Shown here piece by piece: positions 5,426-18,028 of a DNA stretch of 32,930 nucleotides. The number at the start of each line of letters is the position of its first letter. Positions within the stretch are counted from its first letter, which is position 1. Origin of the DNA: Candidatus Liptonbacteria bacterium (lineage in GTDB: Bacteria; Patescibacteriota; Minisyncoccia; UBA6257; 2-01-FULL-56-20); contig JACPLI010000027.1 of the NCBI GenBank assembly GCA_016186635.1, forward strand, positions 1-32,930, in the 5' to 3' direction. A model generated the notes under the pieces. The model was not told where the DNA came from and made no database searches. It saw nothing but the letters and a program-made list of their open reading frames with translations. The translations under genes were made by a program, and so were the position numbers.

Positions 5426-5426
5426 A

Positions 5427-6023: not shown

Positions 6024-6025
6024 TC

Positions 6026-6031
6026 ATTATA
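6026..6031 (-). promoter_or_regulatory. Possible -10 element of the PilV/W/X-like operon
   Basis: A perfect minus-strand TATAAT lies between the structured element and the PilV-like gene. No convincing -35 is found at the usual distance, so this is tentative. Confidence 0.35.
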
Positions 6032-6169
6032 ACGCACGCGCATATCCAAAGGAGCAGCTCTCGGACGCGCGCGAGCTTGGTGTCCGTGAGGACTCGCGCG
6101 CGGAGAGGCAGCGGATGATTGCCGCAGGAGCAATCAGACCGCGGTGCTCCGTGGGATATGCGCGTGCGT
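6032..6169. other. Structured intergenic element: predicted three-way junction, about 138 nt
   Basis: The outer stem is 16 perfect base pairs (6032-6047 with 6154-6169), continued by ggagca (6051-6056) with tgctcc (6145-6150). Inside sit two hairpins: cgcgcgcgag (6066-6075) with 6093-6102, and gcgg-a-tgattgc (6111-6122) with gcaatca-ga-ccgc (6130-6142). The element fills almost the whole gap between the FimT-like and PilV-like genes. It could be a structured RNA leader, an ncRNA or a palindromic mobile element; no known RNA motif was recognised. Confidence 0.7.
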
Positions 6170-6175
6170 GATACC

Positions 6176-6841
6176 CTAAAAACTCACTTCCCCCGCCTTC
6201 GTAACCCGTATCGTCTCTTGCATAACTTCATCATTCCCCCATTGAAGGGTAATTTCTGCGGAAAGGTCGGGAATCCTCGAAAGCTCGTCGGGGGAAAACC
6301 CCGCCGCCCAAATGAACGTAATGGGGTCCGGGGCTTTAAAGAATACTTGTTCAAGCGAGAGTCTGCTGGTGGGCGGCGGGGTTGCGTACAATTTAATTCC
6401 TTTGGAAAACCCGATTGTCTCGACAATATCTTTCCCCAGTCTGGAGGAGTGAGCGGCGGTCCCTATCGTGACGCATTCATTTCCGTTCCTCGGGTCTTCG
6501 TCTCCCGAGTATGTGAAAAGCTTCAGCGTATTCTCCGTGTAGTCAACCTCAACGCCGTACCCGCACGGGCGCTCAAGGTTGCTCCGAAGCCGCGTCGCGA
6601 GCGCGAGCGACTTTGCCCGCTGGATAAAAAGCCCTGCTTTCGCTTCTTCAACGGTGAGCGTCGTGCGCGCCTTGCTGTCGCGCGAGTAGGTAACCGCGTA
6701 CGCCGAGAGCATGAGCGTGATACTCACCACCACGAGCAGTTCTACCAAAGTAAACCCGCCACGAGTGATAAGTGATACCCGCCAGAACGACTGGTGTCGT
6801 CCAGTCGGGCGGGAGCGATAAGTGAGAAGCGGCAAACGCAT
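6176..6841 (-). CDS. FimT/GspH-like type IV prepilin
   Basis: The signature GG-FTLVELLVVVSI starts with the cleavage at G29/F30, Glu5 is present and a transmembrane helix follows. A mature domain of about 190 residues fits FimT/GspH-type pseudopilins, some of which bind DNA during uptake; that role is inference here. The 29-residue leader is unusually long and basic because it is encoded by the heptamer/hairpin repeat at 6765-6835. The ATG at 6841 follows a TATAAT (6850-6855) by only 8 nt and has no useful ribosome-binding site, so the mRNA would be nearly leaderless. An out-of-frame ATG overlaps the start region. The gene ends 7 nt before the structured element at 6032-6169. Confidence 0.87.
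   Translation of the reverse strand: MRLPLLTYRSRPTGRHQSFWRVSLITRGGFTLVELLVVVSITLMLSAYAVTYSRDSKARTTLTVEEAKAGLFIQRAKSLALATRLRSNLERPCGYGVEVDYTENTLKLFTYSGDEDPRNGNECVTIGTAAHSSRLGKDIVETIGFSKGIKLYATPPPTSRLSLEQVFFKAPDPITFIWAAGFSPDELSRIPDLSAEITLQWGNDEVMQETIRVTKAGEVSF
6765..6835. repeat. Split heptamer island with nested hairpin in the FimT-like leader
   Basis: Heptamers gtgataa and gtgatac (6765-6778), a nested hairpin (cccgcc 6778-6783 with ggcggg 6808-6813; cgactgg 6788-6794 with ccagtcg 6801-6807), then gcgataa, gtgagaa and gcggcaa (6815-6835). The architecture is the same as at 5362-5419, with different sequence. Confidence 0.8.
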
Positions 6842-6849
6842 ATGCTCTC

Positions 6850-6855
6850 ATTATA
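6850..6855 (-). promoter_or_regulatory. -10 element just upstream of the FimT-like start
   Basis: A perfect TATAAT on the minus strand, 8 nt before the ATG at 6841. No good -35 is seen. Confidence 0.5.
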
Positions 6856-6870
6856 CCTCCCCGTTTCCTT

Positions 6871-6898
6871 CTTATCACTTCTCACTATCCACTTGCCA
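6871..6898. repeat. Four-heptamer island between pilD and the FimT-like gene
   Basis: Heptamers cttatca, cttctca, ctatcca, cttgcca (28 bp) abut the pilD stop codon at 6899. The first unit is a rotation of the reverse complement of GTGATAA. Confidence 0.8.
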
Positions 6899-7750
6899 CT
6901 ACCCTACAAGCACTCTCAAGTACCATCCCACAAACTCAAACCCCGCGAAAAACATGAATGCCGCCGCAAGCCCGAGGAAGGGCCCGAAGGGAAGCGCGCT
7001 CTTCAAGGTCTTCCTCCTCGCCGCCACGCTCAAAATCCCTGCCGCCGCGCCGAACACGAAGGACATTCCCACAAGCACCGCGATATCCGGCCACCCGAAA
7101 AGCGCCCCAAGCGCGGCGGCGAGCTTCACGTCTCCAAACCCCATCCCTCTCCCGCGCGTCACTGCAAGCAAGGCAAGAAGCCCCAGCCCGCCCGCGAGAA
7201 ATCCAAGGAGCTTGTTCAGCCAAATGTTTTGGGAGGCGAACATGAGTATCCCGTAGGAGTGGAGCAGAGACCCCCCTGCCCCGTCCGCGACGGGAGTGAG
7301 AAGCGCCACACCCGCGCCTGCAAGGACAAGGAGCGCATTGCACTCGTCGGGAATGATGCGAAGCCGGAAGTCAATGAGCGCCGCCGTAAGGAGGGTGAGA
7401 AGGGCGAGAATCCACAATGCGGAAAGAATGTAGAATGTAGAATGTAGAATGTAGAAGAGGGAGGAGAGACGGAGAGGAACGAATACGAAAATCAAACCGG
7501 AGAGAAGTTCCACAACCGGATATTGCAAGGTGAGACGCGCTTTGCACCGGCGGCATTTGCCTCGCTGTAAGACAAAACTTATAAGCGGAATTAGTTCAAA
7601 CCACCGGAGCGTCGTCCCGCAATGTATGCAACGCGACCGCCCGCCGATTACGGGGCGCGCAAATAAAAACCGATTCGGGTCATAGCGGAGCGAGACCACG
7701 TTCAAAAAACTCCCTGCGGCGAGACCGAGAACGAGTAAAAGAAGCCACAT
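6899..7750 (-). CDS. pilD: Prepilin peptidase PilD (type IV leader peptidase / N-methyltransferase)
   Basis: Cleaves prepilin leaders after the conserved Gly and N-methylates the new N-terminus, in the cytoplasmic membrane. The N-terminal domain carries the zinc tetracysteine pair CIHC (41-44) and CRRC (66-69). The aspartyl protease residues are Asp127 (ALIDFRLRIIPD) and Asp208 in GFGD (205-208). Multiple membrane helices make up the 283-aa protein, a normal length. A four-heptamer repeat (7429-7456) encodes about residues 99-108, an extra FYILHSTFYIL-type hydrophobic stretch before the first catalytic segment. The ATG at 7750 follows the toxin stop codon without a gap, so translation is probably coupled to the toxin gene and expression driven from the toxin-antitoxin promoter. 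Confidence 0.96.
   Translation of the reverse strand: MWLLLLVLGLAAGSFLNVVSLRYDPNRFLFARPVIGGRSRCIHCGTTLRWFELIPLISFVLQRGKCRRCKARLTLQYPVVELLSGLIFVFVPLRLSSLFYILHSTFYILSALWILALLTLLTAALIDFRLRIIPDECNALLVLAGAGVALLTPVADGAGGSLLHSYGILMFASQNIWLNKLLGFLAGGLGLLALLAVTRGRGMGFGDVKLAAALGALFGWPDIAVLVGMSFVFGAAAGILSVAARRKTLKSALPFGPFLGLAAAFMFFAGFEFVGWYLRVLVG
7429..7456. repeat. Four-heptamer island inside pilD (TGTAGAA x4)
   Basis: Four perfect tandem TGTAGAA units (28 bp) lie within the coding sequence. Seven is not a multiple of three, so gain or loss of one unit would shift the pilD reading frame. Confidence 0.9.
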
Positions 7751-8020
7751 TTAATATGTTTTGGACGTGCGCCGCTCAATCTTGTACACATGTACGACTC
7801 TCTCGTTGGGAAACAGTTCATAAAAAATGCGATAATTCCCCACACGTCGGCGCCACGAATGTTCCTCGCCTTTCATCTTCCATGTATCGCCCGCATATGG
7901 ATTCGCCGCGAGCGAATCAAGAATCACTACAACGCGTTCCCTGTCGTAAACGGGAAATTTTGCAAGTGCCCTGCGTGCACGCTCTCTAACGTTTACTACC
8001 CAACTCTCGCTTGAGCTCAT
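7751..8020 (-). CDS. RelE/ParE-superfamily toxin
   Basis: The 89-aa product has the small basic RelE/ParE fold signature: an N-terminal helical part, then GEEHSWRRRVGNYRIFYEL and a C-terminal VVHVYKIERR strand. Such toxins usually cleave ribosome-bound mRNA or inhibit gyrase; which applies cannot be told from sequence. The ATG at 8020 overlaps the antitoxin gene by 35 bp, the usual arrangement of translationally coupled toxin-antitoxin pairs. pilD begins immediately after its stop codon, an odd placement that puts a pilus gene in a toxin-antitoxin operon. Confidence 0.88.
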   Translation of the reverse strand: MSSSESWVVNVRERARRALAKFPVYDRERVVVILDSLAANPYAGDTWKMKGEEHSWRRRVGNYRIFYELFPNERVVHVYKIERRTSKTY

Positions 8021-8216
8021 TCAGCGTCACAAATTTTCCCTTACGGTAATCCTCGCGCGCCCTTTTGAGATCGAGAAGCTGCGCGCGTGTCGGCGTAAAT
8101 TCTTTCACTCGCTTCACGGTTCTCGCCCATGCTTCGAACTCCTCATACTCCTTCCGCGGCACAAGCACAAGGTCCCCTTTGCGGGCAAGCTCCTTTGGAA
8201 TGGTAACAGTGGTCAT
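7986..8216 (-). CDS. Antitoxin partner of the RelE/ParE toxin
   Basis: This 76-aa protein has an N-terminal strand (TTVTIPKELARKGDLVLVPRKEY) resembling the start of AbrB- or Phd-like antitoxin DNA-binding parts, followed by a charged helical C-terminus expected to wrap the toxin. It is the first gene of the antitoxin-toxin-pilD unit. A promoter at 8223-8250 places the transcription start at or 1 nt before the ATG, so the mRNA looks leaderless. Autoregulation by the antitoxin is typical of such loci and is inferred; the adjacent inverted repeat at 8251-8313 could be an operator, but it lies upstream of the -35. Confidence 0.82.
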   Translation of the reverse strand: MTTVTIPKELARKGDLVLVPRKEYEEFEAWARTVKRVKEFTPTRAQLLDLKRAREDYRKGKFVTLNELKRELGSKR

Positions 8217-8222
8217 GGGTCC

Positions 8223-8250
8223 AGTATAACCGCCATCACGCTCGCGTCAA
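8223..8250 (-). promoter_or_regulatory. Promoter of the toxin-antitoxin-pilD operon
   Basis: TTGACG (8245-8250), a 16-bp spacer and TATACT (8223-8228) on the minus strand. Exactly 6 nt separate the -10 from the antitoxin ATG, which predicts a leaderless transcript. Confidence 0.7.
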
Positions 8251-8313
8251 ACCCCCACACCTAGTGCGGAGTTGTATCCACAGATGTGTCCGCTCCGCAC
8301 TAGGTGTGGGGGT
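8251..8313. repeat. 20-bp perfect inverted repeat upstream of the toxin-antitoxin operon
   Basis: Arms 8251-8270 and 8294-8313 are exact reverse complements around a 23-nt loop. A direct repeat gtcaaaccc (8246-8254 and 8312-8320) flanks them. It may be an operator, a terminator stem or a small insertion. Confidence 0.8.
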
Positions 8314-8326
8314 CAAACCCACCGTA

Positions 8327-8370
8327 CAAAAACAAAACCCGCTCCGCCTGCTTCACCGCAGAGGGAGCGG
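8327..8370 (-). terminator. Terminator of the major-pilin-like gene
   Basis: Minus-strand stem ccgctcc/ggagcgg (8364-8370 with 8339-8345) is followed by a T-rich tail (plus-strand A-rich 8327-8337). Confidence 0.65.
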
Positions 8371-8395
8371 ATTGAAGAATGCCTGCGGCCCCTCG

Positions 8396-8908
8396 CTACT
8401 TCCCCAACGAGAGGCAGTAGAGAAGCCCAAATCCGCAGTGGGTCGGGAATTGGGCTGCACCAGCCGACGGGGCAACTCCTTTATAGCTGCCATCCAACGC
8501 AGCTTTGTTCGAAATCTCGAGCTCTGATCCGATGACGTAGGATGTTCCCGGATTTCCCCCCATGCCCGCTTCCGCCCTATAAAAGTAATGCTTGCTTCCG
8601 CCCAATGGGTCATCGGGGATACCACCAAGGGCAATACCGATACCCGCATCCTCAAGCTTGGTCTGCAACTGTACCCAGGCATTCGAAGCCTCTGGCGCCG
8701 TAGAAAGCAACGGGTATATCCCATTCTTCGTGTAGTAAAGCTCAAGCGCCGTTTGCACCTGCTTCAAGTCGGCAATGCGACGCGTGTCGCGCGCGCTTGC
8801 GCGCCCGCCGCCGATGCCCACAAGAATCACTGACGCAAGGATGCCGATAATCGCAATCACAATCAAGAGCTCAATGAGCGTAAAACCCCTTCGTGATGTT
8901 ATTTGCAT
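8396..8908 (-). CDS. pilA: Type IV major pilin-like protein (PilA/GspG type)
   Basis: A short basic leader ending RRG8 is followed by FTLIELLIVIAIIGILASV with Glu5, the classic mature type IVa pilin N-terminus, so PilD should cut between residues 8 and 9. The mature part has the YYTKNGIYP segment of GspG-like pilins and two cysteines near the C-terminus (THCGFGLLYC) that could form the terminal disulfide loop. The length of 170 aa is normal. The ATG at 8908 lies 6 nt after an extended -10 (TGA-TATGCT), predicting a leaderless mRNA, and a terminator follows, so it is monocistronic. Its own strong-looking unit suggests it is the most expressed pilin; this is inference. Confidence 0.9.
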   Translation of the reverse strand: MQITSRRGFTLIELLIVIAIIGILASVILVGIGGGRASARDTRRIADLKQVQTALELYYTKNGIYPLLSTAPEASNAWVQLQTKLEDAGIGIALGGIPDDPLGGSKHYFYRAEAGMGGNPGTSYVIGSELEISNKAALDGSYKGVAPSAGAAQFPTHCGFGLLYCLSLGK

Positions 8909-8914
8909 ATGTTT

Positions 8915-8923
8915 AGCATATCA
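8915..8923 (-). promoter_or_regulatory. Extended -10 promoter of the major-pilin-like gene
   Basis: TGn followed by TATGCT on the minus strand, ending 6 nt before the ATG. No well-spaced -35 is seen. Confidence 0.5.
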
Positions 8924-8963
8924 CAACCGACCTTTCTCAAGCTGTGGATAAGTCAAAATGGCT

Positions 8964-9014
8964 ACGAAATACGAATAAGTATCGCACGAAATTACGAATA
9001 AGTACGAACATACG
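8964..9014. repeat. ACGAA-type repeat tract at the 3' end of the GxxExxY gene
   Basis: Several tacgaa/acgaata words in a row, related to the tracts at 9414-9450, 10688-10724 and 10740-10783. It overlaps the last codons of the GxxExxY gene. Confidence 0.7.
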
Positions 9015-9414
9015 AATCAGAATTTACTACCCGCTTCAGCACTACTCCTTTCGGTGAAAAGTTAGCAAGAATTGCGAGTTTCAAACCGCTCGCCCGCAAA
9101 TAATTGAAAACCTGTTCTATATTGTGACGGGAAAACGTACTGCCTTTTTTCAACTCAACCAAAACCTTACCTTCAACCACAAAATCACAACGCTGTCTCC
9201 CAATATATTCCCCATGAAACTTCACGGGCAACAAAACCTCCCGCTGGAACTTCAGCCCCTTATCTTTGAACGCGACTGTAACAGCCCGCTGATAGTACGC
9301 TTCAGAATACCCCGGTCCAAGTGTATTCGCTACCTCGAACAGCGCACCGACGATTGCATAACTTAACTCGGGTTCAATAATATCTGCCCTTCGTACTTTT
9401 ACCTCTGTTCGCAT
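8992..9414 (-). CDS. GxxExxY protein (PD-(D/E)XK nuclease fold)
   Basis: The family motif is present as GYSEAYY (35-41). A nuclease-like core follows: Asp77 in RCDFVV and ELKKG with Glu87 and Lys89, matching the D-x(n)-E-x-K pattern of PD-(D/E)XK enzymes. The biological role of this widespread family is not settled. At 140 aa it is slightly longer than usual. It sits in the middle of the pilus cluster but has no evident link to pili. Both its start codon and its last codons fall inside ACGAA-type repeats lying in opposite orientations (9414-9450 and 8964-9014), so the gene looks like the cargo of a small repeat-bounded cassette. That mobility is inference. Confidence 0.88.
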   Translation of the reverse strand: MRTEVKVRRADIIEPELSYAIVGALFEVANTLGPGYSEAYYQRAVTVAFKDKGLKFQREVLLPVKFHGEYIGRQRCDFVVEGKVLVELKKGSTFSRHNIEQVFNYLRASGLKLAILANFSPKGVVLKRVVNSDSYVRTYS

Positions 9415-9450
9415 TCGTATTTTCGTAAGTTATTCGTACGTTCGTGCGAT
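9414..9450. repeat. Left copy of the perfect 37-bp inverted repeat flanking pilC
   Basis: 37 bp that recur as an exact reverse complement at 10688-10724. The copy contains the GxxExxY start codon edge and ends 8 bp before the pilC stop codon. Confidence 0.92.
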
Positions 9451-9457
9451 ATACCAT

Positions 9458-10678
9458 CTACCCGCCGAGCCCGGAAGAACTCGTGAGCTGGTAGAGTGGG
9501 AGCAATATCGAGGCGAAGAGAAGCCCCACCAGTATCCCGATGCCGCCGATGAGGAGGGGCTGGAGGAGGTCCACGATGTTGTTGATGACCGCATCCGCCT
9601 CGCGCTCGTAGAACCCCGCGACGCGCCCGAAAATCTGGCTGAGTTGCCCGCTTTGCTCCCCCACCGCAATCATCTGCGAGACGAGCGGCGGGAAATAATC
9701 GGGATAGCGGCGGAGCGCGCCGGAAATGGTCTCCCCGCTCCGCACCGCCTCCGAAATCTCGTGGAGCAGTTCCTCATAGAGCGCGTTTGAGACGACGTGA
9801 CTCACGATTTCAAACGCCTGCGCCACAGGAATGCCTCCTTTGAGGAGAAGCGACGTGGTGTAGGAAAAGCGGGAGAGGACGAGTGGGAGATATATCTTGT
9901 TCACAAGGGGCAGGCGCACTTTCGAGTCGTCGAGCGCCGCGCGCCCCTCGGGCGTGCGAAAATAGTCGAGCACAAAAATTCCTCCGAAGACAAGCGCGAG
10001 AAGCACGAGCGGCCACCACGAGCCCAAGAATCCCCCCGCGCCAAGCAGCAACTTGGTCATCCACGGGAGGTCCACCCCCGCCTGGTCGAAGACGGGCTTG
10101 ATTTGGGGGAACACGAACGCCACCATGACGAACGCGACGATGCCGAACATCCCTACGACGAGCGCCGGGTAGGTCATCGCCCCGATTGCCTTTCCCGCGA
10201 GCACATCCTCCTTCTCGGTGTAATCCGCAAGGAACCCGATGACTTCCTCGAGCCGCCCGGTCGTCTCCGACGCCTGCACCATAGAGACGTAAAAGTCCGA
10301 GAACACTCCCTCGCGCCGCCCCATCGCCTGCGAGAAGGAAAGTCCCGAGTCAATATCCTCTCCCATTTCGAAAATCGCTTCCTTGAGCGCGGGGCTCGCC
10401 GTCTGCGCATGGAGACTGCGCAACGCGGAAGAGATGGGGATCCGCGCCTCAAGAAGCGTCGCGAGCTGGCGGAAAAAAATGACTTTGTCTTTTCGCTTCA
10501 CCCGCCCGAAGTACCCCAACAGCCGGTCGAGCATGCCGGCTTTGCCCGCCGGCTCAATGCTTAAAATAAAGAGGTTGTGCCCCGAGAGAATAGATGTCGC
10601 GCCCTCCCGGTTCGGCGCCTCGACGAATCCCGTCTGGTCTTCTCCCTCTTTGGTTTTGGCGCGATATTTGAACTTCAT
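9458..10678 (-). CDS. pilC: Type IV pilus inner-membrane platform protein PilC (GspF family)
   Basis: The platform protein that couples the PilB/PilT motors to pilin polymerisation. The 406-aa product has the expected layout: a short N-terminal domain (KYRAKTKEGEDQTGFVEA), then two GspF repeats of about 120 residues, each a helical cytoplasmic part followed by membrane helices (near 170-190 and 220-240 in the first half, and 375-400 at the end). The second repeat contains ALRRYPDYFPPLVSQMIAVGEQSGQL, the standard family signature in its usual place. The ATG at 10678 lacks a recognisable ribosome-binding site. The gene is separated from pilT by two ACGAA-type repeats instead of the usual tight spacing. 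Confidence 0.96.
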   Translation of the reverse strand: MKFKYRAKTKEGEDQTGFVEAPNREGATSILSGHNLFILSIEPAGKAGMLDRLLGYFGRVKRKDKVIFFRQLATLLEARIPISSALRSLHAQTASPALKEAIFEMGEDIDSGLSFSQAMGRREGVFSDFYVSMVQASETTGRLEEVIGFLADYTEKEDVLAGKAIGAMTYPALVVGMFGIVAFVMVAFVFPQIKPVFDQAGVDLPWMTKLLLGAGGFLGSWWPLVLLALVFGGIFVLDYFRTPEGRAALDDSKVRLPLVNKIYLPLVLSRFSYTTSLLLKGGIPVAQAFEIVSHVVSNALYEELLHEISEAVRSGETISGALRRYPDYFPPLVSQMIAVGEQSGQLSQIFGRVAGFYEREADAVINNIVDLLQPLLIGGIGILVGLLFASILLPLYQLTSSSGLGG

Positions 10679-10687
10679 TGCTTCGCC

Positions 10688-10724
10688 ATCGCACGAACGT
10701 ACGAATAACTTACGAAAATACGAA
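10688..10724. repeat. Right copy of the perfect 37-bp inverted repeat flanking pilC
   Basis: Exact reverse complement of 9414-9450, located 10 bp upstream of the pilC start. Confidence 0.92.
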
Positions 10725-10739
10725 CAGGTTATGCTGTAA

Positions 10740-10783
10740 CATTCGTATGTTCGTAATAATTCGTAAATTAGTGCGATATATTT
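10740..10783. repeat. Related ACGAA-type repeat between pilC and pilT
   Basis: attcgtatgttcgtaa... followed by gtgcgatata, a diverged copy in the same orientation as 9414-9450. It lies in the 130-bp gap that otherwise shows no gene. Confidence 0.7.
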
Positions 10784-10808
10784 CGCGTCTTTGTGTAATA
10801 CATCATTC

Positions 10809-11879
10809 CTATAATCTCTCCAGTAAAATTCTAAGCTCCGCCGGGTTCAGCGAATACAATTCCGCGTTCTCAAGCGAGATTTCTTTATTCTTCACGAGAA
10901 GCGCCAGGGCGCGATTCAGCGTAATCATGCCTTCCTGCAAGCTGGTTTCAATCACAAGGTCAATCTGGTAAATTTTCCGTTCGCGGATGAGGTTCCGAAT
11001 CGCGGGGTTCACCAGCATGATTTCCGCCGCGGGCATCCTGCCCCCCGAGGTGCGCGGCAGGAGGCGCTGGGAAACGATGGCGACTAAGGTCGCCGCAAGC
11101 TGGGAAACCACCTGCCCCTGCTGCTCCGGCGGGAAACTGTCAATAATCCGGTCAATCGTCTGCGAGGCGGAGTTCGTGTGGAGCGTGGAGAACACCAAGT
11201 GCCCCGTTTCCGCCGCCGTCATCGCGGTCGCGATTGAGGATGCGTCCCGCATCTCGCCTATCATGATGACATCCGGGTCCTGCCGGAGCACCGTGCGCAA
11301 GGCATCATTGAAAGTCGCGGTGTCGTTCCCGACTTCGCGCTGGGAAATAATCGCTTTGTCCTGCGTAAAAAGATACTCAATGGGGTCTTCCACCGTCACG
11401 ATGTGGTCCGCCCGCGTATGGTTCACTTCGTCCAAGACCGCGGCAAGCGAGGTGGACTTGCCGTGCCCCGCCGGACCCACCACAAGCACGAACCCCTGCG
11501 AGAGTTTTGCAAAGTCGTGCAATATCGGCGGGAGGCCAAGCTCCTCCACCGTGCGGATGCGAGCGGGAATCACCCGCAAAGCCGCGGCGACGTACCCCCG
11601 CTGGTAGTACACGTTCGCCCGGAACCGCACCTTATCCTCAAGGTTATACGCAAAGTCAAACTGGCGCTCTTTCACGAAGCGCTCCTTCTGCTCCGGCGTG
11701 AGGAGCGCGGACACCAGCCCCTCGGCAACTTCGGGCGTGGTGATTGCCTCTTTCTGGAGGGGAATAAGCGCGCCGTCAATCCGCAGGGTTGGGCGCTTTC
11801 CCACGGCAAGGTGAAGGTCCGACGCACTCTGCCGCGCCGCGGCGACAAGAAGGTCTTTGAGTTGGGTTTGGTAATCCAT
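10809..11879 (-). CDS. pilT: Type IV pilus retraction ATPase PilT
   Basis: Hexameric cytoplasmic ATPase that powers pilus retraction and twitching. Visible motifs: Walker A GPAGHGKST (135-143; Ala replaces the common Thr), Asp box TVEDPIEYL (162-170), Walker B DVIMIGEMRD (203-212) and His box AAETGHLVFSTLHT. The AMRDAS-like region and the length of 356 aa match PilT better than PilB, and there is no zinc tetracysteine. The ATG at 11879 lies just below a palindromic repeat (11881-11969), with no good ribosome-binding site. It lies downstream of pilB in the same orientation. Confidence 0.95.
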   Translation of the reverse strand: MDYQTQLKDLLVAAARQSASDLHLAVGKRPTLRIDGALIPLQKEAITTPEVAEGLVSALLTPEQKERFVKERQFDFAYNLEDKVRFRANVYYQRGYVAAALRVIPARIRTVEELGLPPILHDFAKLSQGFVLVVGPAGHGKSTSLAAVLDEVNHTRADHIVTVEDPIEYLFTQDKAIISQREVGNDTATFNDALRTVLRQDPDVIMIGEMRDASSIATAMTAAETGHLVFSTLHTNSASQTIDRIIDSFPPEQQGQVVSQLAATLVAIVSQRLLPRTSGGRMPAAEIMLVNPAIRNLIRERKIYQIDLVIETSLQEGMITLNRALALLVKNKEISLENAELYSLNPAELRILLERL

Positions 11880-11880
11880 G

Positions 11881-11969
11881 GGAGTATTCGCGAATAACGC
11901 TAATCTGGATTCAAGAATGCGAATCCATTCGCGTTATTTGCCGCAATTCGCATTATTCGCGATTACTCC
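11881..11969. repeat. Nested palindromic element between pilB and pilT
   Basis: Outer arms 11881-11897 and 11953-11969 pair over 17 bp with one mismatch, and inner arms tggattc (11906-11912) with gaatcca (11921-11927). AT-rich words such as gcgaata recur throughout. Confidence 0.75.
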
Positions 11970-11973
11970 TATT

Positions 11974-13704
11974 CTACACTTCTTCCGTCTCCCGTACCAC
12001 CTCCTCAAACATCACCGTCCCCTCAAGCGCCTTCATCACTCCGTCCTGCCGGAGTGTAATCATGCCCTGGTCCTTCGCTTCTTTCACGATGCGCTGGATG
12101 GTGGGTCCCGTCGCCACAATCTCCTTGAGCGCATCACTCATCTCGAGAATCTCGAAAAGCGCAATGCGCCCTGTGATGCCGCGCCCCTTGCACGCGCTGC
12201 ACCCCGGCGCGTGGAATATCTTGTAGGGCTCCGCATAGCGCGATTTCACTTCCTCCGGCAGCCCCTGGAGCGCCGCGGCGATGATTTTGAGAACGCCCGG
12301 CGAGGCAGGTTCCCTCGCCTTGCAGGCAGCGCACAGCTCCCCCACGAGCCGCTGCGCAATCATCACGCTCACCGAGACCGGCAGGAGAAACGGCTCCACT
12401 TTCATATCCATGAGGCGCGAAACCACGCTCGCGGCGTTGTTCGTGTGAATGGTGGAAAGCACGATGTGCCCGGTAAGCGCGGCGCGCACGGCAAGCTCCG
12501 CCGTCTCGGCATCCCGAATCTCTCCCACCATGATGACGTCCGGGTCCTGCCGGAGGATCTGCCGCAACCCGGAGGCGAAGTCATACCCGATTTCCGGGTG
12601 CACCTGCGACTGGTTCACGCCAGACACCAAGTACTCCACCGGGTCTTCCAAGCTCACGATATTCACCTTGTCGCTATTCAAGCGCTGGAGCACCGCGTAG
12701 AGCGTGGTTGTTTTTCCTGAACCGGTGGGACCGCTCACCACCACCATCCCGTAGGGCTTTGCGAGGTTCTTTTCGAGCACCGCGAGGTTTCTGCCGGTGA
12801 GCCCCAGCATATCGAACGATTTGAGCCCCACCGAGGGGTCCAAGACGCGCACCGCTATCTTTTCTCCCGCGGGCGTCGGGAACGTGGCGACCCGAAAATC
12901 TATTTCCCGGTTTTGGACCGTTGTTCGGAACCGGCCGTCCTGCGGCACGCGATTCTCGTCAATCTTTAGGTTCGAGAGCACTTTAATGCGCGAGATAACC
13001 GGCTGCGCAAGCTCAAGGGGGAGCGACGCGGACTCCTGAAGCTCACCGTTGATTCTGAACCTCACGCGCAAGAAACTCTCCTGCGGCTCGATGTGGACGT
13101 CCGAGGCGCGCTGCAGCACCGCTTCCTCAAAGGTGCGCGCGACGATTTTGATGACCGGCGCATCCTCGATATCCCCCGCCTTGACCTCTTCGAGCCGCAC
13201 AGCGTTTTTCCCCTTCGCCGTTCCTGGCCGTGCACGGAACGAAGCAAGCGCCTCGTCAATATCGTTCCGGTAGGGAGAATATTTTTGGAGAATCCGCTGC
13301 CAGTCGCCCCATGAAATCACATAGATGCCCAGACTCGCGCGGTTGGAGCGGGCAACAAATTTCAGCGCTTCCTGCGCCTTTTGGTCGTCGGGGTTGAGCA
13401 TCCCCACCACGAGGAGCCCTTCCTTCCTCCCCAAGGGCGCCACTCCGTAGGTCCGCGCCGTGGCCTCCGGAACCACGCGCAAGAGCGAATCATCGAAGCT
13501 GCCGATGTCCACCTTCTGGTAGGGAATCTTCAGCGCCGCGCTTTTCACCTCCGCCACACGCTGGTCATCGGCAAGACGTTTCGTGTAGAGCACATCTTCC
13601 ACGGAACGGTTCCCGAGAAGCGCTTCGCGCTGAACCTTCGTGGCGGAGACCGCATCAAGCACGCCCGCGCGCTGGAGCTCTTTGAGTAATTGGTCGCCAG
13701 TCAT
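11974..13704 (-). CDS. pilB: Type IV pilus assembly ATPase PilB
   Basis: Hexameric ATPase driving pilus extension. The N-terminal MshEN-like domain (about 1-150) is followed by the GspE core: Walker A GPTGSGKTT (325-333), Asp box SLEDPVEYL (351-359), Walker B DVIMVGEIRD (389-398) and His box LTGHIVLSTIHTNNA. The zinc tetracysteine of assembly ATPases is present (Cys458, Cys461, Cys502, Cys505), which separates it from PilT. The length is 576 aa from the ATG at 13704. The frame stays open upstream to 13782, but those codons are repeat DNA (heptamers at 13711-13738), so I reject a longer start. Confidence 0.96.
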   Translation of the reverse strand: MTGDQLLKELQRAGVLDAVSATKVQREALLGNRSVEDVLYTKRLADDQRVAEVKSAALKIPYQKVDIGSFDDSLLRVVPEATARTYGVAPLGRKEGLLVVGMLNPDDQKAQEALKFVARSNRASLGIYVISWGDWQRILQKYSPYRNDIDEALASFRARPGTAKGKNAVRLEEVKAGDIEDAPVIKIVARTFEEAVLQRASDVHIEPQESFLRVRFRINGELQESASLPLELAQPVISRIKVLSNLKIDENRVPQDGRFRTTVQNREIDFRVATFPTPAGEKIAVRVLDPSVGLKSFDMLGLTGRNLAVLEKNLAKPYGMVVVSGPTGSGKTTTLYAVLQRLNSDKVNIVSLEDPVEYLVSGVNQSQVHPEIGYDFASGLRQILRQDPDVIMVGEIRDAETAELAVRAALTGHIVLSTIHTNNAASVVSRLMDMKVEPFLLPVSVSVMIAQRLVGELCAACKAREPASPGVLKIIAAALQGLPEEVKSRYAEPYKIFHAPGCSACKGRGITGRIALFEILEMSDALKEIVATGPTIQRIVKEAKDQGMITLRQDGVMKALEGTVMFEEVVRETEEV

Positions 13705-13710
13705 GGGATA

Positions 13711-13738
13711 GTGATGAGTGATGAGTGATAAGCGATAA
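13711..13738. repeat. Four-heptamer island upstream of pilB (GTGATGA/GTGATAA)
   Basis: gtgatga, gtgatga, gtgataa, gcgataa in tandem (28 bp), ending 6 bp from the pilB start codon. Confidence 0.88.
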
Positions 13739-13800
13739 GCGGCAGACGTTCCGGCACATACATCTGCCGCACCTTGTCCCATTTCGCTTGTTCCATGTTC

Positions 13801-14094
13801 CTAAAATCCAAGGAGCGGATTTGCCCTCCCCATCTTGGTCGGCTGGGGAAGGGATATGTACGGCTTGAGCTCCAAGAATGCCGCGCTCCGCATGAGGCGC
13901 TCCGGGTCAAGGTCAACTTTCGCAAGCGCCTCGGTGTGCCTGAAATTCTCCGGCGTCGAGAAAGAAGCGAAGTCGGGGTTTTTGAAAAAAAGATAGTAGG
14001 TCGCCGCGACGACCACGCCCACGATGACCGCCCACACGAGGACGGTGACGATACCCACTGAATTCTGCTGTTCCTCTTCGAGGATAATGGCCAT
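13801..14094 (-). CDS. Small single-pass membrane protein of the pilus operon
   Basis: A 97-aa protein with an acidic N-terminus (ILEEEQQN), one membrane helix at about 13-36 and an external tail ending in SLPQPTKMGRANPLLGF. I do not recognise a named family. The C-terminal GRANP motif after a proline-rich stretch is reminiscent of the GR-x-(D/N)-P-F ending of inner-membrane PilP/GspC-type pilus components. Its place between pilO and pilB, where pilP usually lies, supports a PilP-like role (inference). The ATG at 14094 is 8 nt from the pilO-like stop codon, so it is cotranscribed. Confidence 0.72.
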   Translation of the reverse strand: MAIILEEEQQNSVGIVTVLVWAVIVGVVVAATYYLFFKNPDFASFSTPENFRHTEALAKVDLDPERLMRSAAFLELKPYISLPQPTKMGRANPLLGF

Positions 14095-14102
14095 GATTAT
14101 TA

Positions 14103-14696
14103 TTAATTCTTCTGATAATACGTCGCAATTCTCAAGTCGACTTTGTAGAGGTCCTGGTTGGGCTTCGCGGACGGTGCGATGCCGAAGGATATGGCATCAA
14201 ACACGCGGATGTTTGTCTCGAGTTTCTCAAGAAAATTCTTCACATTTTCGTAGCTCCCCGTGAACGCCACTTGGAGTGAGAGTGTGCCGAGCGGCCGCGT
14301 CAAGTCCACCGCGTCCTTCGGAGCTGCCGCGCCGGCACTCCACCCCGAAGAATCCCCCTCTTCGCTTACCGTGAACGCTTGCGCGCCCAAGGTATCGTTT
14401 TGCACCAATCCCGCAAGCTGCGTGAGTGCGCCGGAGACATCCGCAGTCAAGGGGAGCACAAGACTGATAAACTCCCGCCGCTCCGCCTGGTTATTGTAGG
14501 CGCTGATGAGCTGCTGAACCTTTTTGACCGCGTCCTGCTCGTTGCGCACAAATTCTTCCCGCACCAGCACTTCGCTCTTCAAAGCCTGCACGTCCGCGTA
14601 CGCCGGCTGGATAAAATTGAAAAACAAAATCGCCGCACCGCCCATAAGGAGGAGGGAAACAATCATGCTCATGAGCCGCTTGGTGGTCTGTTTCAT
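14103..14696 (-). CDS. pilO: PilO-like inner-membrane pilus alignment protein
   Basis: Layout of PilO: a short cytoplasmic start, one membrane helix (about 10-30), a coiled-coil segment (about 35-70, DVQALKSEVLVREEFVRNEQ) and a C-terminal ferredoxin-like domain containing the YENVKNFLEKLE motif typical of PilO/GspM-like proteins. It is expected to dimerise with PilN and link PilM to the rest of the envelope complex. At 197 aa it has normal length. It lies between the PilN-like gene and the small membrane protein, in the canonical M-N-O order. No strong ribosome-binding site precedes the ATG at 14696. Confidence 0.85.
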   Translation of the reverse strand: MKQTTKRLMSMIVSLLLMGGAAILFFNFIQPAYADVQALKSEVLVREEFVRNEQDAVKKVQQLISAYNNQAERREFISLVLPLTADVSGALTQLAGLVQNDTLGAQAFTVSEEGDSSGWSAGAAAPKDAVDLTRPLGTLSLQVAFTGSYENVKNFLEKLETNIRVFDAISFGIAPSAKPNQDLYKVDLRIATYYQKN

Positions 14697-14718
14697 TGTT
14701 GAGTGGCTCTCACGGGAT

Positions 14719-15270
14719 TCATTTCTTCCTAAACGAACTTGCCGGGAGCGTAAGCGTGCCGCCGAATTCCCACACTCCTTTCTCCCCCGCCGTCACTCCT
14801 CCGAACGTAGCCGACTGGACCTCCTTTGCCCGTTCGAACGCCGCGAGCTGTTCCTCCACGTCCCTCAAACTTTTCCCCGTCCCGGAGAACGAAACCTTCC
14901 CCGACGGCACATCCACGGAAAGCTGCCCGTAGAAAACATTTTGATGCGTGTGTTCCTCAAACCACTTCAAGAAGGGGGTAAGTGCCGCATGCTGGTCCAA
15001 CAGCGTTTTCACGTTGCTCAACTGCGCGTAAAAGGAGGTAAGCTTCACCTGCTGGGCGAGCGGAATTTGCTGGGTAAATGCCTGTATCTGGTCATTCAGC
15101 TTTTTCCTCCGCCCTTCAAAATACGGCTTGTACCCAAGTACAATCCCCCCGTACACGATGGCGCTCATCAGAAACAATGCGCCGGAGAAAAGCAAAAGCT
15201 GCGAAGACCAGCCCGGCGTCCCCGCCGGCTCGCGGCTCAATCGGTCAATGACTTTTTGAGGTAAGGGCAT
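14719..15270 (-). CDS. pilN: PilN-like inner-membrane pilus protein
   Basis: A 183-aa protein with a short cytoplasmic tail (PLPQKVIDRLSREPAG), one membrane helix, a helical coiled-coil stretch and a C-terminal alpha/beta domain with VSFSGTGKSLRDVEEQLAAFE, the pattern of Fimbrial_assembly/PilN C-terminal domains. The PilM-binding motif of classical PilN (IN-L-LP) is reduced to MPLPQK, so the PilN name rests on gene order between pilM and pilO and on topology. I chose the ATG at 15270; a TTG at 15294 would add eight residues encoded by heptamer repeat DNA. A TTGATA-17-GATAAT arrangement in the repeat just upstream could be a promoter, but is weak evidence. Confidence 0.78.
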   Translation of the reverse strand: MPLPQKVIDRLSREPAGTPGWSSQLLLFSGALFLMSAIVYGGIVLGYKPYFEGRRKKLNDQIQAFTQQIPLAQQVKLTSFYAQLSNVKTLLDQHAALTPFLKWFEEHTHQNVFYGQLSVDVPSGKVSFSGTGKSLRDVEEQLAAFERAKEVQSATFGGVTAGEKGVWEFGGTLTLPASSFRKK

Positions 15271-15277
15271 TAGAAAA

Positions 15278-15312
15278 TAATTATCAATTGCCAATTTCCA
15301 ATTATCAATAAA
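15278..15312. repeat. Heptamer island upstream of pilN (CAATTAT type)
   Basis: taattat, caattgc, caatttc, caattat, caataaa run in 7-bp phase. The reverse complement is the ATTGGNA family also seen at 2153 and 5362. Confidence 0.8.
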
Positions 15313-15325
15313 TGCAGCATGCCAA

Positions 15326-15353
15326 TTGAAAATTGATTATTGAAAATTGAAAA
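15326..15353. repeat. Four-heptamer island at the pilM stop codon (TTGAAAA type)
   Basis: ttgaaaa, ttgatta, ttgaaaa, ttgaaaa (28 bp), ending 2 bp before the pilM stop codon at 15355. Confidence 0.85.
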
Positions 15354-15354
15354 T

Positions 15355-16443
15355 TCATATAAACTCTCTCATCGCGAGCCCCAGCGCCACGGCGAGCACC
15401 GGTCCGACTTCCGGCGCAAGCGGCTCGATTTCATGAACGTGCTCGAACCGGGCGAACGGAGCCGCCTTCACCACAGGCATGCCCATTTCTTTCTCCATGT
15501 ACGCCTCAAGCCCCATAAGGTTCGCACCGCCCCCCGTAAGCACCATCCGTTCGGGCTGCGGGGCGCCGGGAAACTGGCTGCCGTAGCTAAATTGCGCCTT
15601 TTTCACCTCATTGATTATAGCATCCAAAAACGGCAGCATGATTGTGGACAATTCATAGCCCTGCCCCGCTCGGGAAATGCCGCGCTCGCGCTTCAGTTCC
15701 TCGGCGCGCAACGGGTTGATGTTCAACCCTTGGGCAAGCGCCTGCGTGAGCGATGCTCCCGCGAAATCGCTCTGGCTCACGAACCGAAGCTCTCCCCGCA
15801 CTGCAAACGCGATACTCGTCGAGCGGCTCCCCACATCTACCAGCAGTGTGAGCGTCGGGTCCCCCGACGTGAGAAGCCGCGCAAGACTCAAGGGTTCTAT
15901 CTCAAGCGCCCGGAGCGTGAGCCCCGCGAGCTTGAAAAGCCGCTGGTACCGCTTGATGTGCTCCCGAGAAACAGAAATAAGGAGAATCTGGTCGTGCCGG
16001 AATCCCTTCTCATCTGTAAACTCTCCCACCTTCAGCCAGTCAATCGCCACTTCTGAGAGCGGCTGCGGGATATACTCCTTCGCCTGGAATGCAATCGTTT
16101 TTTTGAGTTCCTCGGGCGTCATCGCCGGAAAATCAAGCACCGTGGTGAACGCCGCGAACGCGGGGAGGGAAGCGACCGCTTCCCGCGCGCGGGGTTTCAT
16201 TCTCCCCACGAGAATTTTCAGAAGTTCCGCCGCTTCTTCCTCAAAAATTTTCAAGGTGCTTGTCTGCAAGGCATTGTTCGCGCGGAGGAGATACCCGCCG
16301 AGTTCGAGCATCCCATAATTCAGCACTGCCGGGAGTTTCTCTCCCTGCTTCACTTCCACCGCTTTGATGGACGTCGTGCCAATGTCAACCCCAAGGTAGA
16401 GGGGGAACGTCGCTTGGCGGAGATGCTGGAATACGTTCCACAT
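15355..16443 (-). CDS. pilM: PilM, actin-like pilus assembly protein
   Basis: Cytoplasmic actin-fold ATPase that docks on PilN and helps organise the PilB/PilC platform. The phosphate-1 motif VDIGTTSIKAVEV lies near residue 19, the second (LLVDVGSRSTSIA) in the middle and the adenosine loop (MVLTGGGANLMGL) near the C-terminus, all in family order. From the ATG at 16443 the protein is 362 aa, normal for PilM; upstream codons to 16623 overlap comF and are rejected. A TATAAT ends 6 nt upstream of the ATG, predicting a leaderless mRNA that starts the M-N-O-(small)-B-T-C cluster. Confidence 0.95.
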   Translation of the reverse strand: MWNVFQHLRQATFPLYLGVDIGTTSIKAVEVKQGEKLPAVLNYGMLELGGYLLRANNALQTSTLKIFEEEAAELLKILVGRMKPRAREAVASLPAFAAFTTVLDFPAMTPEELKKTIAFQAKEYIPQPLSEVAIDWLKVGEFTDEKGFRHDQILLISVSREHIKRYQRLFKLAGLTLRALEIEPLSLARLLTSGDPTLTLLVDVGSRSTSIAFAVRGELRFVSQSDFAGASLTQALAQGLNINPLRAEELKRERGISRAGQGYELSTIMLPFLDAIINEVKKAQFSYGSQFPGAPQPERMVLTGGGANLMGLEAYMEKEMGMPVVKAAPFARFEHVHEIEPLAPEVGPVLAVALGLAMREFI

Positions 16444-16449
16444 AACCCC

Positions 16450-16455
16450 ATTATA
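16450..16455 (-). promoter_or_regulatory. -10 element of the pilM-led cluster
   Basis: A perfect minus-strand TATAAT, exactly 6 nt before the pilM ATG. No clear -35 is present. Confidence 0.5.
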
Positions 16456-16522
16456 CCCTCTTTCGCGGGTTTTCGTTGGCACTTCGGCTTCGCTCGCGCA
16501 CACCTGCAGCCCTCGAGGGGGG

Positions 16523-16544
16523 TTCTCGGAGCGCGACGGCGCGA
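16523..16544. repeat. Partial match to the 20809/23647 element core
   Basis: ttctcggagcgcgacggcgc resembles the conserved core of the large elements at 20809-20948 and 23647-23795 with a few changes. It lies between pilM and comF without obvious long arms. Confidence 0.4.
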
Positions 16545-16569
16545 AAGCACAAAAGGATGTCTCCTTGTG

Positions 16570-16575
16570 TACAAT
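16570..16575 (+). promoter_or_regulatory. -10 element of comF
   Basis: TACAAT, exactly 6 nt before the comF ATG on the plus strand. The -35 region is weak. Confidence 0.45.
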
Positions 16576-16581
16576 AAGAAC

Positions 16582-17274
16582 ATGAACCTCGGCCCGCTTC
16601 TCAACCTCCTTTTTCCTCCCCATTGCCTTGCCTGCCGCGCACCTCTCCCCAACGCCTCACAGGGCTTGTGCGCGCTATGCAAGGATGCAATTCTCTGCGA
16701 AACAAATCTCCGATGCGGGAGGTGTTTCGCGCGTCTGCCGGGGGACGCGAAAATATGCCACACGAACTTCCCCTACATTCTCGGCGCGGCAACCCACTAC
16801 CATGATGCGCGCGTCCGCGCGCTCGTCCAGGGTTTGAAATTCCGCCATGCGCACGCCGCCGCCGCGACGCTCGCGGAACTCACGGAGCGCTATCTCCGCA
16901 GCGTTCCTCTTTCCCTCGCATCCTTTGCCATTCTCCCCATACCGCTCTCCCACAAACGGGAGCGGAAGCGGGGGTATAACCAATCCCAGCTCATTGCGGC
17001 GCGCGTGGGGAACGCGCTCGGCATTCCCGTCATAACCGACGCCCTTGTCCGCACCATCCATGCACAACCTCAAAGCGAACTCTCCGACTGGCGCGCGCGG
17101 CACATGAACGTTGCGGGGGCATTTGCAGTGCCTGTTCCCCACCAAGTGGCGCGGAAAGACATTCTCCTTTTCGACGACGTCACCACCTCGGGAGCAACCT
17201 TTTTCGAAGCGTCAGTCGCCCTCAAATGCGCCGGGGCGCGGCGCATCATCGCAGTCGCCGCCGCGAAGGCGTGA
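16582..17274 (+). CDS. comF: ComF family protein (phosphoribosyltransferase fold, DNA uptake)
   Basis: ComF proteins are cytosolic and needed for natural transformation. The N-terminus has a zinc-binding cysteine set (Cys15, 18, 30, 33, 39, 45, 48, 59). The double-zinc-ribbon part is followed by the conserved RKRGYNQS block (128-135) and the PRPP-binding loop DILLFDDVTTSGAT (193-206). The length is 231 aa. The ATG at 16582 is preceded by TACAAT at 6 nt and no ribosome-binding site, so the mRNA is probably leaderless. It diverges from pilM across a 138-bp gap. Its presence next to a full pilus machine supports DNA uptake as a pilus function (inference). Confidence 0.95.
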   Translation: MNLGPLLNLLFPPHCLACRAPLPNASQGLCALCKDAILCETNLRCGRCFARLPGDAKICHTNFPYILGAATHYHDARVRALVQGLKFRHAHAAAATLAELTERYLRSVPLSLASFAILPIPLSHKRERKRGYNQSQLIAARVGNALGIPVITDALVRTIHAQPQSELSDWRARHMNVAGAFAVPVPHQVARKDILLFDDVTTSGATFFEASVALKCAGARRIIAVAAAKA

Positions 17275-17658: not shown

Positions 17659-17730
17659 AAAATCATTTTATAACACTCCCTCTCTAATTTCTCGTGGGCC
17701 ACTCATGGCTATTGGCTAATCGCTACCTAT

Positions 17731-17888
17731 GTGTCCCCACGAGGAATTTCACGCCGCCCCGCCTTCGGCGGGGACTCCCACAAACCCCTCGGTTTGTGTG
17801 AATCCGCCACGGGAAAACTCCTGTTTTCCCGACCCCTTTCCCTGTTCAATTCCTCGTGGGTACACTGCCCGTGTCCCCACGAGGAATT
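17731..17888. repeat. Hairpin-rich element bounded by copies of the tRNA-Arg 3' end
   Basis: The 18-bp gtgtccccacgaggaatt, which is the tRNA-Arg 3' end, occurs at 17871-17888 and again in direct orientation at 17731-17748. An inverted copy with one mismatch lies at 17849-17866; a weaker inverted copy is at 17686-17702. Between them are three perfect hairpins: ccccgcc/ggcgggg (17757-17773), cacaaacc/ggtttgtg (17779-17798) and cgggaaaac/gttttcccg (17810-17831). Confidence 0.85.
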
Positions 17889-17943
17889 GAACCTCGATCT
17901 CATCCTCCGCAGGGATGCGCTCTATCCGTTGAGCTATGGGGAC
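17872..17943 (-). tRNA. tRNA-Arg (anticodon GCG)
   Basis: Acceptor GTCCCCA/TGGGGAC, D arm GCTC/GAGC, anticodon stem CATCC/GGATG with loop CTGCGGA giving anticodon GCG, and T arm CGAGG/CCTCG. CCA is not encoded. Most bacteria use the ACG anticodon (read as inosine) for CGU/CGC/CGA, so GCG is unusual. Hairpin-rich elements flank both ends. Confidence 0.92.
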
Positions 17944-18028
17944 ATTGACTCGCCGTTCAGCCCCGACGCGCGGTGCGACCGGGGCCCCGTACTCCCGCCA
18001 GCCGGCGGGATGTCGGGGCTATGGGGAC
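17933..18028. repeat. Hairpin-rich insertion flanked by duplicated tRNA-Arg 5' end
   Basis: gctatggggac (17933-17943, the tRNA 5' end) is repeated directly at 18018-18028. The 74 bp between them contain the inverted repeat agccccgac/gtcggggct (17959-17967, 18012-18020) and the hairpin cccgcc/ggcggg (17994-18009). Confidence 0.8.

What the first reader, a model, noticed from the sequence alone, without database searches (positions are those of the whole stretch)
17731..18028. tRNA-Arg is bracketed by hairpin-rich elements that duplicate its own ends
On the 3' side an 18-bp copy of the tRNA end occurs directly (17731) and inverted (17849), enclosing three perfect hairpins. On the 5' side an 11-bp copy of the tRNA start (18018) encloses a further 74-bp hairpin element. 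This looks like two insertions that used or copied tRNA termini, as target duplications or attachment sites, but the inserts are too short to encode an integrase.
Basis: partly seen in the sequence, partly recalled or inferred. Interest (0 to 1): 0.7.

Follow-up and report, generated by a model that had tools for sequence, protein, structure and literature searches.

The report
tRNA-end-copying mobile RNA element
The hairpins beside this tRNA gene are one copy of a widespread, protein-free mobile element of ultra-small (Paceibacteria-type) bacteria, which sits beside almost any tRNA gene and carries at its two ends copies of that same tRNA's 3' part, so the gene stays intact; what moves it is unknown.

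Summary
Window 17731-17865 (minus strand) is one copy of a dispersed, ORF-less element with a conserved structured core of about 65-100 nt. I collected 162 distinct copies from Paceibacteria/Parcubacteria-type genomes. Of these, 118 lie just 3' of a same-strand tRNA, of 19 isotypes. Others sit in tmRNA, lepA/typA-type GTPase genes, rplK, hppA and pgk. Each copy is matched to its own target: on the left an inverted copy of the T-loop (tRNA positions 53-62), on the right a direct copy of exactly 61-73, 98% identical to the own tRNA against 71% between same-isoacceptor tRNAs. Near-identical bodies in one genome sit at different tRNAs with re-matched ends; same-genus relatives have empty sites. 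Covariation, GNRA loops and a G-U over A-C excess indicate an RNA of the tRNA's strand. None of five mobility protein families tested explains it; no Rfam, phage, plasmid or IMG/VR match. The mechanism is inferred: guide-like pairing to the T-loop, insertion at 60|61, target end regenerated, probably reversible. The 5'-side 11-bp copy is real but isolated.

The parts
17871..17943 (-). tRNA-Arg(gcg), intact; the target. T-loop 53-60 = 17885-17892; 61-74 = 17871-17884
   Evidence: ARAGORN; Rfam RF00005 68.7 bits, 17872-17943
17844..17865 (-). X': inverted copy of the own T-arm (rc of tRNA 53-62 at 17844-17853, extended towards the acceptor end); guide-like left end
   Evidence: 22-nt inverted repeat, 95%; in 118 tRNA copies X' matches the own tRNA at position 57 in 89% (other tRNAs 47%) and at 59 in 86% (19%)
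17778..17842 (-). Conserved core (model R1), 89.1 bits; only copy in the window
   Evidence: covariation
17810..17831 (-). Hairpin 1 CGGGAAAAC-AGGA-GTTTTCCCG; loop GNRA in 90 of 122 copies
17779..17798 (-). Hairpin 2 CACAAACC-GAGG-GGTTTGTG; four pairs never vary in A2, four show changes on both sides
17757..17773 (-). Hairpin 3, variable between genomes, shared by paralogous copies within a genome
   Evidence: sequence; comparison of copies
17745..17756 (-). Right end of the element, GGCGTGAAATT; replaces T-loop 53-60 before the copied tRNA end (family form GACGTGAGATT)
   Evidence: right copy equals own tRNA only 19-25% at positions 55-56
17731..17744 (-). Y: direct copy of tRNA positions 61-74 (18 nt identical in all, 17731-17748)
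   Evidence: in 104 copies 96-99% identity from 61 to 73/74, then a sharp fall
18018..18028 (-). 11-bp copy of the tRNA 5' end upstream of the tRNA; probably not part of the element
   Evidence: no relatives

Best explanation
The 3' segment (17731-17865, minus) is one copy of a non-autonomous mobile element family of Paceibacteria-type bacteria whose active form is a structured RNA of the tRNA's strand. SHOWN: the family is dispersed; it multiplies within a genome at different tRNA genes; it is present at some and absent at other matching loci between same-genus genomes; its junction lies at the T-loop/T-stem border (60|61); its left end is an antisense copy of the own T-loop (53-62) and its right end a direct copy of the own 3' end (61-73); the target gene stays complete on the left. 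INFERRED: the left antisense segment acts as a guide that pairs with the target strand across the 60|61 junction; the element inserts there with duplication of the target's end, so no tRNA is lost; ends are rewritten at each new target; and the insertion is reversible, which would keep the displaced right copy functional. The enzyme is not encoded in the element and is unknown, either a host activity or an undescribed protein.
For: Dispersal: 36 of 61 relatives, up to 14 copies each; 70 exact core hits in the genome collection, nearly all Parcubacteria-type MAGs. Target: 118 of 162 copies within 250 nt 3' of a same-strand tRNA, 19 isotypes, against roughly 1% expected from my estimate of tRNA density. 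Own-target ends: Y matches the own tRNA 96-99% at 61-73 and X' matches at 53-62; same-isoacceptor tRNAs share only 71% there; the block ends at the last tRNA base. Movement: 39 of 102 nearest neighbours are in the same genome (expected 4.9, 0/2000 shuffles) and only 2 at the same tRNA type (expected 1.4); a 270-nt extension inside hairpin 2 is shared by copies at tRNA-Pro, -Ile and -Asp of one genome. Empty sites: hppA in G001 and G002, tRNA-Glu in G001, rplK in G002, tRNA-Arg in G002. Target duplications in the best-preserved copies, 34-87 nt. RNA: 98.2% paired cells, 310 two-sided changes against 79 shuffled; GNRA 90/122; G-U 32 against A-C 10. Reversibility: right copies still pair with the tRNA's 5' strands, 11.46 of 12 against 11.56; duplicated hppA and pgk ends differ by about 20-25% of bases with no amino-acid change.
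Against: No enzyme was found: RT is not associated (21/36 element-bearing against 11/25 others, my count); Y1 transposase 14/61 and absent from most high-copy genomes; TnpB-type 0/61; IS110 0/61; tyrosine recombinase mostly one gene per genome, probably Xer. No excised circle or transcript has been seen. X' is partly pre-existing at some sites (L010, L087, L108), so 'rewritten at insertion' is not proven. For rplK in G000 the copy with deviant codon usage is the right one, for hppA the left one, so the direction of replacement is not consistent.
Confidence: 0.7

Rival explanations
1. Retro-element: the RNA primes on the nicked T-arm and is copied by a reverse transcriptase (target-primed, SINE-like), giving variable target duplications.
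For: Variable 34-87 nt duplications in recent copies; the right junction keeps donor sequence GTGAGATT next to perfect target sequence from 61, as expected of a primer-binding site; the active form is RNA.
Against: RVT_1 is found in 21/36 element-bearing and 11/25 element-free genomes; genomes with several copies and high completeness (G003, G025, G050) show none. The left antisense T-loop is not explained by simple priming.
Confidence: 0.2
2. Attachment-site element: a tyrosine recombinase, probably the host's Xer, integrates and excises small circles at the T-arm, as integrases do at tRNA 3' ends.
For: Target gene regenerated by a carried copy; conserved-gene targets with synonymous-only differences; foreign-looking codon usage of the left hppA copy; tandem accretion in some loci (L053, L089).
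Against: One body serves many unrelated tRNAs in one genome with re-matched ends; foreign donors would give about 71% identity at 61-73, not 98%; most genomes carry a single tyrosine recombinase whether or not they carry elements.
Confidence: 0.2
3. A static small-RNA gene that regulates its neighbouring tRNA; matched ends are kept by selection, and dispersal is old gene duplication.
For: Strong RNA structure; right copy 61-73 kept while its flanks diverged.
Against: Different tRNAs in each genome, empty loci in same-genus genomes, copies in protein genes in either orientation, nearest relatives at other loci of the same genome.
Confidence: 0.07
4. REP/REPIN-type DNA repeat moved by a Y1 (RAYT) transposase.
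For: Short, hairpin-rich, non-autonomous, intergenic.
Against: Y1_Tnp is absent from G000, G003, G004, G025, G030 and G054, which carry 5-14 copies; target duplications and target-matched ends are, to my knowledge, not REPIN features.
Confidence: 0.03

Closest known systems
REPINs and their RAYT transposases (PMC3116915)
   Same: Short, ORF-less, hairpin-forming, dispersed within bacterial genomes, non-autonomous
   Different: REPINs are inverted doublets of REP sequences with a Y1 transposase, randomly placed in extragenic space; here an RNA core, tRNA targeting, target-matched ends, no associated Y1 transposase
tRNA-targeting integrative elements with tyrosine integrases (from general knowledge)
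   Same: Insertion at a tRNA 3' part, target gene regenerated, direct repeats at both ends
   Different: Known ones are kilobases long, encode an integrase and fit one tRNA; here about 135 nt, no ORF, any tRNA, plus an inverted T-loop copy
IS110-family elements with bridge RNA (from general knowledge)
   Same: Concept of a structured RNA with segments complementary to both sides of the target junction
   Different: No IS110 recombinase in 61 genomes; long target duplications and target copies inside the element
SINEs and tRNA-gene-targeting retroelements of eukaryotes (from general knowledge)
   Same: Small structured RNA, no ORF, amplification at new loci with variable target duplication, tRNA-gene preference of some
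   Different: Bacterial; no reverse transcriptase association; ends rewritten to match the target
Group I introns (internal guide sequence) (from general knowledge)
   Same: A 5' segment complementary to the end of the upstream exon and the start of the downstream exon, the same geometry as X' here
   Different: No group I catalytic core; no Rfam match; copies also lie in antisense orientation to protein genes

Membership tests
REPIN / RAYT | Y1 (RAYT-type) transposase in the genome | tested here: not met
   PF01797 in 14/61 relatives, 0 in G000, G003, G004, G025, G030, G054
REPIN / RAYT | Inverted doublet of one short REP palindrome | tested here: not met
   Three different hairpins and a conserved single-stranded lead, not an inverted doublet
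tRNA-targeting integrative element | Encodes an integrase | tested here: not met
   Element about 135 nt; even the longest variant (about 400 nt with its ends) reads as a structured hairpin domain
tRNA-targeting integrative element | Direct repeat of the tRNA 3' end bounding the element | tested here: met
   104 of 118 tRNA-linked copies
IS110 / bridge RNA | DEDD recombinase (PF01548) | tested here: not met
   0 of 61 genomes
Retroelement / SINE-like | Reverse transcriptase available in trans | tested here: inconclusive
   RVT_1 in 32/61 genomes, no association with the element
Retroelement / SINE-like | Target-site duplication | tested here: met
   34-87 nt in the best-preserved copies
IS200/IS605 with TnpB and omega RNA | TnpB-type nuclease (PF07282) | tested here: not met
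   0 of 61; a Cas12f1/TnpB zinc-ribbon model, IscB not tested
Known structured RNA family | Rfam match | tested here: not met
   Only tRNA reached a gathering score
Self-splicing intron / ribozyme | Catalytic activity | not testable with these tools
   Needs biochemistry; no Rfam intron match

The most novel reading that the evidence does not exclude
A protein-free mobile RNA that finds its target by base-pairing of an 8-10 nt guide with the universal T-loop, inserts at position 60|61 of any tRNA gene, rewrites both its ends to match the new target, and can leave again without harm: a new kind of RNA-guided, target-adapting mobile element.
Probability: 0.3. Interest if true: 0.95.

Novelty: categorically new. 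Interest (0 to 1): 0.77.

Why it matters
It would be a mobile element class defined by target-matched ends and a structured RNA, common in the vast, mostly uncultured Paceibacteria, using the conserved T-loop as a universal safe harbour. If the guide reading holds, it is a natural system that adapts its specificity at each jump. It also offers a concrete way to look for an undescribed insertion enzyme: something these reduced genomes all have. Novelty is provisional: only open-licence PMC papers could be searched, and that search was short.

Tried and rejected
Rfam: no match besides tRNA. Virus contigs (two patterns), plasmids and phages: no match, so no carrier element found. Reverse transcriptase, Y1, tyrosine recombinase, TnpB-type and IS110 families as partner: none explains the distribution. 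Looked for an autonomous long version by fetching up to 20 kb downstream of copies without a nearby repeat: only the G054 variant with a 270-nt RNA extension turned up; the rest have a short or decayed right end. 5'-side element: no relatives. Foreign-donor model for all copies: rejected for tRNA copies because own-tRNA identity at 61-73 is far above that between isoacceptors of other genomes. Plain target duplication with neutral decay: rejected because 61-73 stays 98% identical while the adjacent flank falls to about 30%. Literature: nothing describing this family.

Full report
CHECK OF THE OBSERVATION. tRNA-Arg(gcg) lies at 17871-17943 on the minus strand. On its 3' side there is an 18-bp direct copy (17731-17748), a 22-nt inverted copy (17844-17865, 95%) and three hairpins between them; on its 5' side an 11-bp copy at 18018-18028. 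The tRNA with its 3' element folds far better than shuffles (z -7.1); the 5' segment does not (z -1.3). In shuffled flanks the 18-bp copy never recurs (0/3000), the 11-bp one recurs 3 times in 3000.

IT IS A FAMILY. A DNA search of the own genome and 60 relatives found the hairpin part, without the tRNA, at many other places. Almost all of these were just downstream of other tRNA genes. Fifteen copies gave a covariance model of the core, R1 (64 positions, 17 pairs). R1 finds copies in 36 of 61 relatives, up to 14 per genome (12 in the own genome), but only in 22 of 380 genomes sampled over the phylum at a stricter cut-off. An exact core pattern hit 70 stretches in the named genome collection, nearly all Parcubacteria/Paceibacteria-type MAGs (Colwellbacteria, Liptonbacteria, Harrisonbacteria, Jorgensenbacteria, Moranbacteria and others; two hits are labelled Polynucleobacter and Nanoarchaeota and are probably misbinned). 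No hits in IMG/VR, plasmids or phages. The window holds one copy, 17778-17842 minus, 89.1 bits.

TARGETS. The copies were collected by their core, not by tRNAs, so the target statistics are not built in. Of 162 distinct copies, 118 have a same-strand tRNA ending within 250 nt upstream, most at 40-75 nt, of 19 isotypes. Most of the others show the same architecture on tmRNA-like ends and on conserved protein genes: lepA/typA/EF-G-type P-loop starts, rplK starts, hppA and pgk ends (gene names are my reading of the translated repeats). In all of these the complete gene lies on the left of the element and a fragment on the right.

ENDS MATCH THE OWN TARGET. For 118 tRNA-linked copies, positions were compared with the own tRNA and with random other tRNAs. 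The right copy equals the own tRNA at 96-99% from position 61 to 73 (others 25-81%, depending on position); just upstream it drops to 19-25% at positions 55-56. The left segment X', directly before the core, is the reverse complement of the own 53-62: position 57 89% against 47%, position 59 86% against 19%. The right copy was found (at least 11 of 13) in 104 of the 118. Its identity ends at the last base of the tRNA gene and falls to about 55% and then 30%. tRNAs of the same isoacceptor from other sequences share only 71% at 61-73 (4% perfect), against 98% (82% perfect) between left and right copies. So the right end comes from the own tRNA and has not decayed like its flank. About eight copies, presumably recent, have long near-perfect duplications running through the terminator (34-87 nt).

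IT MOVES. Within genomes, copies share a genome-specific third hairpin although they sit at different tRNAs with different ends. Nearest neighbours of the body are in the same genome for 39 of 102 copies (expected 4.9; 0 of 2000 shuffles), at the same tRNA type for only 2 (expected 1.4). In G054 a 270-nt structured extension inside hairpin 2 is shared by copies at tRNA-Pro, tRNA-Ile and tRNA-Asp, each with its own ends. Filled and empty loci exist within the genus: hppA filled in G000, empty in G001 and G002 with about 45-60 nt between stop codon and next gene; tRNA-Glu(ctc) filled in G000, empty in G001 although the tRNA is identical over 74 nt; rplK filled in G000 and G001, no element in G002; this tRNA-Arg filled in G000 and G001, no element in G002, where a similar small ORF follows.

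RNA OF THE tRNA STRAND. Pairing is kept in 98.2% of cells over 111 sequences, with 310 two-sided changes against 79 in shuffles; this alignment was fitted to the structure. The first, independent 15-sequence alignment gives the same picture (98.4%, 0/500). Hairpin 1 carries a GNRA loop in 90 of 122 copies, and G-U pairs outnumber A-C mismatches 32 to 10, as expected if the tRNA-sense strand is the functional RNA.

HOW IT MAY WORK. Fixed points are a junction at 60|61, an antisense segment covering 53-62 across that junction, and a regenerated target. I infer that X' is a guide pairing with the T-loop strand across the junction, much as a group I internal guide sequence or a bridge RNA spans its junction, and that insertion duplicates the target's end so the tRNA stays whole. 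The right copy is odd: it is kept fit to complete the tRNA (11.46 of 12 acceptor and T-stem pairs against 11.56 for the left copy), and duplicated hppA and pgk ends differ at about 20-25% of bases without any amino-acid change. That is expected if the element leaves now and then and exposes the right copy to selection, or if gene ends are exchanged between strains. The hppA left copy has foreign-looking codon use (third-position GC 0.35, against 0.68 in the right copy and 0.73 in the genome), but rplK points the other way.

WHAT MOVES IT IS UNKNOWN. Reverse transcriptase (32/61), Y1 transposase (14/61), TnpB-type (0/61) and IS110 (0/61) do not fit, and tyrosine recombinase is mostly one gene per genome, probably Xer, in carriers and non-carriers alike. 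Either a host enzyme or an undescribed protein acts, or the RNA itself is catalytic; none of these could be tested here.

THE 5' SIDE. The 11-bp match is real, but the segment has no relatives, and such own 5' copies are rare (8 of 240 against 2.2 expected), while own 3' copies are frequent (94 of 240 against 1.6) in loci mostly gathered through the element. I regard it as a remnant or coincidence, separate from the element.

LIMITS. Genomes are MAGs; some copies lie near contig ends; counts are of sequences, not independent events; the threshold for calling a right copy (11/13) inflates its identity slightly, though 85 of all 118 tRNA copies are still perfect at 61-73; the literature search covered open-licence PMC only.

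Noticed in passing
L191 291-640 (G054:C1), also L189 and L193: Long variant of the element: about 270 nt of extra structured, apparently non-coding sequence inside hairpin 2, closed by a 19-bp stem, three copies at different tRNAs of one genome. No Rfam family.
   Followed up: partly
L002 719-808; L091 589-686; L211 2271-2361; L213 2722-2795: A second, unrelated fold-back repeat family (GGAGTAATCGCGAATA...TATTCGCGATTACTCC) dispersed in this genus, in two genomes lying a few hundred bases from a reverse transcriptase gene.
   Followed up: no
window 17702-17732 and G000:C9:18967-18997 (L007): A 31-nt stretch right after the element recurs at 94% near a tRNA-His of the same genome; possibly another tRNA-side repeat.
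   Followed up: no
L002, L038 (rplK starts in G000 and G001): The 20-codon rplK fragments left beside the element differ between two species at nine bases, none changing an amino acid apart from the start codon (ATG/GTG); an open frame continues through the antisense of the core to a stop just before the real gene.
   Followed up: partly
L044 (G043:C83): One copy duplicates an antisense D-arm sequence of tRNA-Leu rather than its 3' end, so the T-loop is not the only tRNA target.
   Followed up: no
window 4406-16623: Run of type IV pilus or type II secretion-like genes (pilin-like, pilB, pilT, pilC, pilD, pilM-like) and a comF-like gene at 16414-17274, read from the translations only; natural DNA uptake would be one route for exchange of gene ends.
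   Followed up: no
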